NCBI RefSeq assembly: GCF_001543245.1
Contig: NZ_CP014163.1
Span: 1-64,000, forward strand
Source of the DNA: Aerococcus urinaehominis
GTDB lineage: Bacteria > Bacillota > Bacilli > Lactobacillales > Aerococcaceae
DNA length: 64,000 bases
Direction: 5' to 3'
This document shows positions 16,568-18,673 of this stretch, in pieces. Below the pieces are notes generated by a model, which worked only from the letters and a program-made list of their open reading frames with translations, was not told where the DNA came from and did no database searches. The position numbers and the translations under genes were made by a program. Position 1 is the first letter of the stretch, and each line of letters opens with the position of its first letter.

Positions 16568-16931
16568 GGGGGTGTTTTCTGGATTCGACAGGCGACTCCC
16601 GGTGTATGACTACTATCCGCAGGTGACGACTGCGTAATAACGTCTCAGAGTAAAATTAACTGACAAAAACGAAAACCAAACTTTAGCTTTCGCTGCCTAA
16701 AAACAGTGAGCTAAGATCCGTCTAGCATCACCTATGTGCTAGGTCCGGGTCCTATTGCAGTAGGTTACGCCCTGAGCTTCCACCTGGAGCATAGGGGAAG
16801 AGATTAACCAGGTCCGCCAAGGGAAGCGGTTGTTGCTGTCCGCTCCTACGGCTAAACTAAACAGACAACTATGATGGTAAAAGTTGTATAACTGGCTCGT
16901 CTGGACAGGGGTTCGACTCCCCTCACCTCCA
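16568..16931 (+). ncRNA. ssrA: Transfer-messenger RNA (tmRNA)
   Basis: tmRNA rescues stalled ribosomes and tags the nascent protein for degradation. The 5' end GGGGGTG pairs with CACCTCC at 16924-16930 to form the acceptor stem, with A16931 as discriminator; CCA is not encoded. The tRNA-like 3' half contains the T-arm GGTTCGACTCC. The tag frame runs from GAC 16662 to TAA 16698-16700 and encodes DKNENQTLAFAA. The first tag residue would be Asp rather than the common Ala, and the end is AFAA rather than ALAA. A promoter precedes it and a long hairpin follows. Confidence 0.95.
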
Positions 16932-17078: not shown

Positions 17079-17126
17079 ACTAGTAATAAGTTATAACAAA
17101 GCGACCTATTTTATCGTGTCTCAAAA

Positions 17127-17511
17127 CACTACACTAATTAAGCAAAAACATGTATAGAACTACCGCCCACGACGCTATTTTTAATATGCACTACTCTAAC
17201 GAGGCTAGAATGTGTAGAGAAATATCGCACCTACTGCAGATCCCTAAATTCACTACCTTAAATAGGGGAGAACGTGTAGAGAATCGTCACATCCAATATC
17301 AAACACCAGAATTCACTACCTAAAATAGACCAGATTATGTAGAGAAAAGCCGCACTTGAACCTTTCTGTTCCAATTTACTATCCTAACTAGGTTAGATCG
17401 TGTAGAGACCGCCACCTCCAGAGCCAGTTCCTCAATTCACTGTCCTAACTTACCCATAAAGTGTAGTGAATACTCTAAGCTATTTAAGCCAAATGCTAAA
17501 AAGCCCACTAC
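17127..17511. repeat. Array of about seven degenerate repeats with a 61-63-bp period
   Basis: The motif CACTAC or a near variant begins at 17127, 17189, 17251, 17314, 17377, 17438 and 17506, at intervals of 62, 62, 63, 63, 61 and 68 bp. Each of the first six is followed, 17-19 bp later, by GTGTAGAGAA or a variant. Between them the trend is CTAAnTAGG. After GTGTAGAGAA comes a CGCAC-like block, and AATT usually precedes CACTAC. About 18 bp per unit are not conserved. The ends form an imperfect inverted repeat (TTCACTAC with GTAGTGAA), perfect over 7 bp at its ends in the sixth unit (ATTCACT with AGTGAAT). Every frame has stops, so it is non-coding. No known element is recognised. The rest of 16932-17566 holds only the two terminators and the candidate promoter. 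Confidence 0.85.
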
Positions 17512-17523
17512 CTCAAAACACCA

Positions 17524-17553
17524 CAAAAAAAGCTAGGCGATTAGCCTAGCTTT
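17524..17553 (-). terminator. Terminator of the lactate oxidase operon
   Basis: AAAGCTAGGC (17529-17538) and GCCTAGCTTT (17544-17553) form a 10-bp stem with a 5-nt loop. On the minus strand a run of seven T residues follows. The plus side has only TTTCTCT, so it is mainly a leftward terminator. Confidence 0.85.
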
Positions 17554-17566
17554 CTCTATATCTATA

Positions 17567-18673
17567 CTATTTTAAATCTTTCAAACGGGCATTTTTAACA
17601 TCTGCGATGGTTTGGGTACCAGCTAATTGCATCACGCGTTGTAGGTCTTTTTCGAAGTATTCAAAGACTGATTTAACACCTTTCCAACCGCCTAAGGCAA
17701 GAGAGAAGAGGACAGGGCGACCGATAGCAATGATGTCAGCACCTGATGCCAGAGCCTTGAAGATGTGCTCGCCACGGCGCACACCTGAGTCAAAGACGAT
17801 TGGTACACGGCCAGCAACTGCTTCAGCGATTTCTTCAAGTACTTCAAATGAACCTGGGGCACCATCTAATTGACGACCACCGTGGTTAGATACCCAGATA
17901 CCGTCAGCGCCATTGGCAATACCAGCGATGGCATCTTCAGGTGTTTGTACACCTTTAAGGAAAACAGGTAGGCCAGAGTATTCTTTAATGAAGCGAATAT
18001 CATCTAGGTCGATTTTTTGTTTAGATTGACCGTAGATATTATTTAAGGACATATTGGCACCAGTACCGGTTAGGTAGCGAGATACGATTGGCATACCGAA
18101 TGGGTAAACGAATTGGTTTTTATCATCGCGGTCCCGGTTACCTGAAACCGTTGCATCTGCAGTTAGGATGATAGCAGAAGCACCGTCCTTTTTAGCTTCG
18201 TCTAAGATATTTTTATTTAATTCATCATCTTTAGACATGTAGATTTGGAACCAACGTGGGGTATCACCTAGACCAGCGTCAATTTCTTCAAAGCTGGCAC
18301 CTGAATATGCTGAGATTGACATCAATGAACCGCCAAATTCGGCAATCCCTTTAGCTGTACCTGCTTCTTTAGATTCGTGGGCTAAACCGTGGGCAGCGAT
18401 CGGCGCCATAATGAATGGTACTTTTAATTCGTGCTCAAAGATACGAGTATGGGTATCAGGGAATTCAACATTAGCAGCAACACGTGGTAAGATGCCTTTA
18501 TAGTTGAAGCACTCCACATTACGGCGGAGGGTGAACTCATCACCAGAGCCACCAGCCATGTAGTTGAAACCACCGTGAGGGACGATTTCACCAGCCATAT
18601 CCTCTAACTCGATGGTATTAATAATGTTTAATTCTTTCACTTCACTTGGGGCGTTGTAGTTAATTTCTGACAT
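17567..18673 (-). CDS. lox: L-lactate oxidase (FMN-dependent)
   Basis: This 368-residue flavoenzyme oxidises L-lactate to pyruvate and reduces oxygen to hydrogen peroxide. It resembles Aerococcus viridans lactate oxidase closely, and the active-site set is intact: Tyr38, Ala94, Tyr145, Arg180, Tyr214, Lys240, His264 (SNHGGRQ) and Arg267, each one or two positions lower than in that enzyme. Tyr214 favours a lactate oxidase over a general hydroxy-acid oxidase. AAAGGAG precedes the ATG. It lies 70 bp after the glcD-like gene and is probably co-transcribed, so both lactate isomers could be oxidised. Peroxide production with oxygen is expected. Confidence 0.9.

What the first reader, a model, noticed from the sequence alone, without database searches (positions are those of the whole stretch)
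17127..17511. Unexplained tandem array with 61-63-bp period next to ssrA
Seven starts of a CACTAC-type block occur at 17127, 17189, 17251, 17314, 17377, 17438 and 17506. Six are closed 17-19 bp later by GTGTAGAGAA-like blocks. CGCAC follows and AATT precedes in most units. About 45 bp per unit are recognisably related, and about 18 bp are free. The ends of each unit can pair. Diverged sequence with a fixed period implies that spacing is selected, as for a multi-site protein platform, a multi-hairpin RNA, or a condensin/replication-type locus. It is non-coding, lies between two strong terminators, and matches no element I know.
Basis: partly seen in the sequence, partly recalled or inferred. 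Interest (0 to 1): 0.8.

Follow-up and report, generated by a model that had tools for sequence, protein, structure and literature searches.

The report
Helically phased extragenic palindrome arrays
The odd repeat beside ssrA is one of more than twenty non-coding arrays in this Aerococcus chromosome whose mostly palindromic units sit close to a whole number of DNA helix turns apart, and some related bacteria carry arrays of unrelated sequence that follow the same spacing rule, which points to DNA platforms for proteins rather than to an RNA.

Summary
The array is real: six 38-bp imperfect palindromes (AATTCACTACCCTAACTnGGnGAGAAnGTGTAGAGAAT) 61-63 bp apart, plus a half unit, between ssrA and lctO. 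It is not local: the unit (F1) recurs in nine other places of this Aerococcus genome, and two further families (F2, F4) form arrays too. Neighbouring units lie 62 or 72-73 bp apart, rarely 53, 65, 71 or 115. F1 cores are 74% identical between arrays while spacers are no more alike than shuffled letters, yet spacer length is kept. F1, F2 and F4 have no convincing match in the other genomes searched, but tandem-repeat surveys of relatives list non-coding arrays of unrelated sequence with periods 41-42 and 51-52; several lie just 3' of lctO, as here. Together these periods fall near 10.4-10.5n (n = 4-7); a longer genus-wide family (115-121 bp) does not clearly fit. The window array does not fold as RNA better than shuffles. 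F1/F2 arrays lie 3' of genes (0 of 20 classified gaps divergent) and, with F4, hold 8 of 12 copies of one insertion sequence. No Y1 (RAYT) transposase was found. Best reading: REP/BIME-like palindromes forming a same-face protein-binding or topoisomerase platform at gene ends. The protein is unknown; phase-dependent duplication is the main rival.

The parts
16568..16931 (+). ssrA (tmRNA), neighbour on the left
   Evidence: ARAGORN; Rfam RF00023
16964..17011 (.). terminator-like hairpin, found on both strands, between ssrA and the array
17123..17160 (+). F1 unit 1 (lowest score of the six)
   Evidence: PWM; model R1, 28.3 bits, E 3e-6
17185..17222 (+). F1 unit 2
   Evidence: 32.1 bits
17247..17284 (+). 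F1 unit 3 (highest score of the six)
   Evidence: 42.5 bits
17310..17347 (+). F1 unit 4
   Evidence: 28.5 bits
17373..17410 (+). F1 unit 5
   Evidence: 33.3 bits
17434..17471 (+). F1 unit 6 (right arm GTAGTGAAT; the only one of the six that folds clearly better than shuffles)
   Evidence: 30.9 bits; z -2.06
17506..17511 (+). left half-site only (CACTAC), no closing block
17522..17560 (-). terminator-like hairpin on the lctO strand
17567..18673 (-). lctO-like gene (FMN-dependent L-lactate oxidase type; name recalled, no family search), convergent with ssrA; in seven named loci of four other genera an array of unrelated sequence lies just 3' of its homologue

Best explanation
The array is one member of a species-specific set of extragenic palindrome arrays that work at the level of double-stranded DNA. 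Each palindrome is a binding site for a dyad-recognising protein or topoisomerase. Spacing of whole helical turns (about 6 here, about 7 in the other F1 arrays) puts the sites on one face of the helix, so that bound protein can assemble cooperatively or wrap the DNA. Arrays sit 3' of genes, often between convergent ones, where transcription builds positive supercoils; the likeliest role is a supercoil sink, gyrase-loading site or insulator, functionally like E. coli BIME/REP elements. Shown: units, families, spacing, location, lack of better-than-chance RNA folding of this array, no Y1 transposase detected. Inferred: same-face protein binding and the topological role.
For: F1, nine arrays compared: core 74% identical between arrays, spacer 25-27% (shuffle 25%); over 12 array segments, spacing is 72 or 73 in 45 of 56 distances, 61-63 in the 5 of this array, 115 in 4, 65 and 71 once each (correcting hand-entered positions). 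F2 hits are nearly all 72-73 apart, F4 hits 61-63. In other genomes, non-coding arrays with at least 3 copies have periods 41 (4), 42 (1), 51 (5) and 52 (4), out of 24 listed (22, 2 new); the other ten are under evidence against. For 19 families (the four own family/period classes, and 40 and 43, included) phase concentration is R 0.92, reached by 0 of 8000 random sets; with 30 and 35 added R is 0.84, again 0 of 8000; with each of eight distinct periods used once p is 1e-4. F1/F2: 10 convergent, 10 co-directional, 0 divergent of 20 gaps that I classified by hand (one more ambiguous). Seven of 80 named lctO loci, in four genera, have an array starting about 95-205 bp after the lctO stop (one of the seven by eye). 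RNA folding z +1.0/+1.5 for this array.
Against: No protein was identified and no binding data exist. F2 spacers are partly conserved (35% against 25%), so part of the 73-bp constancy is ancestry. Exceptions inside F1: one 65-bp and one 71-bp spacing. Of the 24 arrays listed in other genomes, ten are not at 41-42 or 51-52: 40 and 43 (AT-rich), 30, 35, a tRNA cluster (79) and five of 116-120 bp. The genus-wide F3 family (115-121 bp) is not clearly quantised and was left out of the test; with four F3 periods and own 53, 65 and 115 included R falls to 0.78 at a best period of 10.88 (still 0 of 4000). Below 3 copies there are off-phase arrays such as 49 x 2.6, 60 x 2.6 and 75 x 2.3. Palindromy is not general: 8 of 19 consensus units pass p 0.05, and the F1 and F4 consensus units do not. 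Two of four F4 arrays and 2 of 15 classified arrays of other genomes are between divergent genes. G.T mismatches exceed A.C on the oriented strand (F1 31:17, F2 53:17), as a transcribed hairpin would give, though strand-biased mutation may explain it. The lpd loci of 29 other genomes gave no array of 3 or more copies, and most lctO loci have none.
Confidence: 0.45

Rival explanations
1. Neutral or selfish tandem repeats. Palindromes promote slippage or recombination, and the duplication process itself favours lengths of whole helical turns (for instance breakpoints made on one face of the helix by a topoisomerase or nuclease). Arrays persist 3' of genes because insertions there are tolerated.
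For: Higher-order repeats of 146, 188 and 219 bp show duplication of several units at once. Families look species-restricted. Copies of one IS pile up in arrays, 8 of 12, which suggests that arrays tolerate disruption.
Against: F1 cores are kept at 74% while spacers are randomised and spacer length is kept; neutral decay should let indels spread the length. Recurrence just 3' of lctO in several genera.
Confidence: 0.3
2. Transcribed hairpin elements: units act as RNA hairpins (mRNA 3' stabilisers, attenuators or a multi-hairpin sRNA).
For: One F2 unit and one symmetric F1 unit fold strongly (z -4.9 and -6.2), one 661-kb F1 unit moderately (z -2.5); G.T exceeds A.C on the oriented strand; F1 pair counts are slightly above shuffles (29-58 of 500 shuffles reach them); arrays lie 3' of genes.
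Against: The window array folds no better than shuffles; five of its six units and the 1585-kb unit do not fold clearly better than shuffles; F2 pair counts are within shuffles (108-200 of 500); terminator-like hairpins flank the window array and the promoter-like matches there are at the chance level (2 against 2.0).
Confidence: 0.13
3. A mobile REP-like or MITE-like family spread by a transposase not recognised here, with function secondary.
For: Dispersed, intergenic, several families per genome as in REP species (PMC3733652; outline with abstract, one section and found passages seen).
Against: No Y1_Tnp (PF01797) in the genome at E 0.001, while 5 of 14 control genomes ring; nearly all detected units are in arrays rather than single; no target duplications of units were sought.
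Confidence: 0.1

Closest known systems
REP/BIME elements (GTAG/CGTC families)
   Same: 20-40 bp extragenic palindromes, many copies, several families per genome, often clustered, predominantly between convergent or co-directional genes (PMC3733652); targets of insertion sequences (PMC1525189, abstract)
   Different: No Y1/RAYT transposase found; no unpaired GTAG or CGTC tag; one-way arrays with a fixed 62 or 72-73 bp period; Lactobacillales host; spacing near whole helix turns in families of unrelated sequence
CRISPR arrays
   Same: Imperfectly palindromic repeat of about 37 bp with spacers of constant length
   Different: F1 repeats only about 80% alike within an array, spacers similar within arrays (56%); no cas-like neighbour noted among the ORFs listed beside the arrays (not searched by profile); a separate CRISPR-like array exists elsewhere in the genome
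EFAR, RUP, BOX and STAR repeats of Firmicutes (recalled; EFAR and RUP are also named in a passage of PMC3733652)
   Same: Dispersed small intergenic repeats in Gram-positive genomes
   Different: No sequence comparison was made; fixed helical spacing is not a feature I recall for them
Multi-site protein platforms such as plasmid centromeres and iterons (recalled)
   Same: Repeated sites at helix-compatible spacing for cooperative binding
   Different: Many chromosomal copies beside ordinary genes; longer sites and spacing; no cognate protein identified

Membership tests
REP/BIME (GTAG or CGTC, RAYT-linked) | short extragenic palindrome in high copy, 3' of genes | tested here: met
   for F1 and F2; F4 differs (2 of 4 arrays between divergent genes)
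REP/BIME (GTAG or CGTC, RAYT-linked) | unpaired GTAG or CGTC tag at one end | tested here: not met
   CTAC/GTAG lie opposite each other in the two arms of F1, and GTAG lies inside the F2 stem
REP/BIME (GTAG or CGTC, RAYT-linked) | Y1/RAYT transposase in the genome | tested here: not met
   PF01797: 0 matches in own genome; controls ring in 5 of 14
CRISPR | near-identical repeats with unique spacers | tested here: not met
   F1 within-array core 80%, spacer 56% identity
CRISPR | cas genes | tested here: inconclusive
   ORFs listed beside arrays show no cas-like gene by eye; no family search was run on them
structured non-coding RNA | folding better than shuffles and covarying pairs | tested here: not met
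   window array z +1.03 and +1.50; F1 pair counts reached by 29-58 of 500 shuffles, F2 by 108-200 of 500; no Rfam match over the array at gathering cut-offs
structured non-coding RNA | transcript | not testable with these tools
   no RNA-seq
DNA gyrase or nucleoid-protein site (BIME-2-like function) | protein binding or cleavage in vivo | not testable with these tools
   no binding data
integron attC, iterons, parS | cognate integrase, Rep or ParB and site consensus | not tested
   no search made

The most novel reading that the evidence does not exclude
Aerococcaceae and Carnobacteriaceae-type bacteria carry a general class of chromosomal DNA platforms: extragenic arrays of repeated, often palindromic sites whose sequence is free to change from species to species but whose period is locked to 4, 5, 6 or 7 turns of the double helix, placed mostly at the 3' ends of (probably highly transcribed) genes such as lctO and ssrA, and bound by fast-evolving or low-specificity proteins that manage supercoiling.
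Probability: 0.3. Interest if true: 0.87.

Novelty: new variant of a known kind. Interest (0 to 1): 0.7.

Why it matters
If it holds, the selected property of these repeats is spacing in helix turns rather than sequence, visible across genera with unrelated sequences. That would give a readable signature of protein-DNA architecture at gene ends in Gram-positive bacteria, and make the old question of what REP/BIME-type repeats do testable in a small genome with defined arrays (5-bp against 10-bp insertions, ChIP, gyrase mapping).

Tried and rejected
RNA reading: folding, pair counts and Rfam gave no support for the window array. Y1/RAYT mobility: PF01797 not found. Plasmid or phage origin: no blastn match in the plasmid and phage collections, no exact match of one unit pattern each for F1, F2, F4 in viral contigs nor of the F1 pattern in 84,980 species genomes; these collections may leave out the window's own genome. 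Relatives: F1, four single, partial, weak matches at E 0.03-0.08 in 59 other genomes; F2, 0 of 39 at E 0.01; F4, four weak partial matches at E 0.004-0.009 in 29. These model searches scored only the best 112-150 candidates per genome, so weak units, own ones too, may be missed. A dyad-only detector was too strict to be useful. Phase test on own distance classes alone: p 0.004, or 0.019 with the 65-bp spacing included. Chromosomal clustering: the 22 F1/F2 loci listed leave an 853-kb stretch around the origin empty (p 2.5e-5; 0.012 after merging neighbours); not explained. Array orientation, hand tally: 15 of 19 orientable loci run with replication, 4 against, 3 not orientable; one of the four (1661 kb) has mixed orientation marks, and the tally cannot be separated from gene direction. 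The Fundicoccus 42-bp array at L232:3770-4425 is overlapped by a 221-aa open frame and was not listed by my ORF-filtered survey; it was counted by eye and among the seven lctO loci, a weakness; the second array in L232 (5102-5230, 42 bp) passed the filter. A 114-bp repeat seen by autocorrelation in L239 was not listed by the filtered survey and was not examined. The 225 non-own loci partly overlap each other. Literature: searches listed no paper that by title or abstract start describes these arrays; only open-licence PMC papers are held and few were opened, so that is weak evidence. PMC3733652: outline with abstract, section on genome distribution and found passages seen; PMC1525189: outline with abstract seen; other papers seen only as listings.

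Full report
1. Observation. The shared core is a 38-bp imperfect palindrome, AATTCACTACCCTAACTnGGnGAGAAnGTGTAGAGAAT (alignment A1, 35 units from the window and four fetched stretches). Several of the six window units are among the lower-scoring members. In the window alone the signal is modest (0.430 autocorrelation at lag 62 against at most 0.397 in 30 shuffles; a loose two-block count did not beat chance), but a pattern of 33 positions hits three times, only here, against none in 100 shuffles.

2. It is one of many. A blastn of the array in its own genome found further places, and a sequence-only model of the unit found units at 17, 562, 662, 668, 1585, 1634-1635, 1651, 1661, 1707-1710 and 1757-1760 kb, E down to 1e-11: ten places including the window. 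I catalogued 68 units in 12 array segments, segments being split where an IS interrupts. A second family F2 (GAAGTAGCTTAAGTGGnGGAGTTAAGCTATTT) forms arrays at 675, 732, 1596, 1642-1644, 1710-1711, 1724, 1754, 1762, 1766, 1799, 1815 and 1819 kb. A third, F4 (CATTCTnnGCTAATTTTnnTTTTAGnTGACTTTGA), has 35 matches: 34 in arrays at 628, 698-700, 1647-1649 and 1651 kb and one single weak match at 616 kb. A fourth, F3, has a period of 115-121 bp and is shared with other species of the genus: 8 of 15 genus genomes match, counting the own one.

3. Spacing. Of 56 adjacent F1 distances, 29 are 73, 16 are 72, 5 (all in the window) are 61-63, 4 are 115, and one each is 65 and 71. F2 hits are almost all 72-73 apart; the variant array at 1596 kb has a 126-bp repeat made of 73 + 53 (from hit positions). 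F4 units are 62 apart, with 61 and 63 once each (gaps over IS copies not counted). Between nine F1 arrays the cores are 74% identical, but the spacers are 25% (left-aligned) and 27% (right-aligned) identical, which is what shuffled spacers give (25%) (the two symmetric 1707/1709 kb segments and the 1757 kb pair were left out). So in F1 spacer length is kept where spacer sequence is not. F2 spacers keep some similarity (35%) and F4 spacers too (34%), so there part of the constancy may be shared ancestry.

4. Other genera. Loci fetched for lctO (the best 80 of 347 kept) contained, by chance, arrays of unrelated sequence. A TRF survey (non-coding, at least 3 copies) over 225 partly overlapping loci outside the own genome, 2.13 million bases, listed 22 arrays: periods 41 (3), 42 (1), 51 (4), 52 (4), then 40 and 43 (AT-rich), 30, 35, 79 (tRNA genes) and five of 116-120 (F3-like or similar). 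A later set of 29 other-genome lctO loci added 41 bp x 4.9 (upstream of lctO) and 51 bp x 3.2 (3' of it), and showed an 84/126-bp signal in one more; 29 other-genome lpd loci added none with 3 copies. Below 3 copies off-phase arrays occur (49, 60, 75). Of 153 pairs among 18 consensus units only the two F1 forms are clearly similar, with two weaker pairs at z 3.1-3.6. For the 19 families used (40 and 43 included, one Fundicoccus array counted by eye, F3 and tRNA left out) the phase concentration is R 0.92 at a best period of 10.52, reached by 0 of 8000 random sets; adding 30 and 35 gives R 0.84, 0 of 8000; using each distinct period only once gives p 1e-4. The set was partly found opportunistically and some genera appear more than once, so I treat this as strong but not final.

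5. Place. Among F1/F2 loci I classed 10 gaps as convergent, 10 as co-directional, 0 as divergent and 1 as ambiguous (by hand from ORF lists); F4 differs (2 of 4 divergent), and of 15 classified arrays in other genomes 5 are convergent, 8 co-directional and 2 divergent. Neighbours of F1 arrays include ssrA and lctO, and genes that read as trigger factor and clpX, a ClpB-like gene, a TypA-like gene and a dihydrolipoamide dehydrogenase (names from reading the translations, not from a family search); that these are highly expressed is recalled, not measured. Seven of 80 named lctO loci, in Alkalibacterium, Fundicoccus, Desemzia and Atopostipes, have an array starting about 95-205 bp after the lctO stop (Fundicoccus by eye), the same gap as the window array. 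The 22 F1/F2 loci listed leave an 853-kb stretch that contains dnaA (1035 kb) empty.

6. Not an RNA, as far as can be tested. The window array folds no better than shuffles on either strand. F1 pair counts are only slightly above shuffles (29-58 of 500 reach them) though above slid controls on most measures, F2 counts are within shuffles (108-200 of 500), and an A.A mismatch is kept in 29 of 34 distinct F1 units. Single units tested: a symmetric F1 unit z -6.2, an F2 unit -4.9, a 661-kb F1 unit -2.5, a 1585-kb F1 unit +0.7, and the six window units between -2.1 and +1.1. An excess of G.T over A.C mismatches on the oriented strand is the one hint for an RNA or single-strand role, and strand-biased mutation could cause it.

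7. Mobile elements. One transposase-bearing insertion sequence (IS256-like by my reading) has 12 full copies, and 8 lie inside F1, F2 or F4 arrays. Published REP elements are likewise targets of insertion sequences (PMC1525189, abstract). No Y1 transposase, the partner of classical REPs, was found.

8. Mechanism. The facts that need explaining together are a conserved core, a randomised spacer of fixed length (F1), periods near whole helix turns in unrelated families, and a place mostly after genes. Same-face protein assembly on double-stranded DNA explains all four; supercoil handling by gyrase or a nucleoid protein fits the place and the BIME precedent (gyrase at E. coli REPs, passage in PMC3733652). 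The protein and the topological role are inferred. The chief rival is a duplication process that itself prefers whole turns.

Noticed in passing
L120:25-484 (G000:C1 about 1790024-1790483): CRISPR-like array, 61-bp period, repeat containing CCCGCATACGCGGGGGTGATCC (type I-E-like by eye) in the same genome.
   Followed up: no
G000:C1 1708170-1709465 and 11 further full copies: IS with 12 near-identical copies (IS256-like by reading), 8 of them inside palindrome arrays; an 8-bp direct repeat (GCTTATCT) flanks the 1708 kb copy.
   Followed up: partly
G000:C1 732.6-1585.4 kb: No F1/F2 array detected in this 853-kb stretch around dnaA, although arrays crowd 1.585-1.83 Mb and 0.56-0.73 Mb.
   Followed up: partly
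L042:3065-3577, L077:6097-6457, L097:15310-15925, L192, L209: F3: genus-wide extragenic family, 115-121 bp period, core like CACACCCTGTTTTAGTCGGGTTCG plus a long hairpin; 8 of 15 Aerococcus genomes match.
   Followed up: partly
L237:2040-2150, L240:4010-4100: In Atopostipes the array after lctO is followed by a sequence resembling SRP RNA (by eye), perhaps another small stable RNA gene beside lctO as ssrA is here.
   Followed up: no
L232:3770-4463: Fundicoccus 42-bp array is read through by an open frame of 221 aa with 14-residue repeats, probably spurious.
   Followed up: no
L076:13326-16912: Two probably secreted proteins with repeated domains, cell-wall-binding-like by eye, near the 1707-1711 kb arrays.
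   Followed up: no
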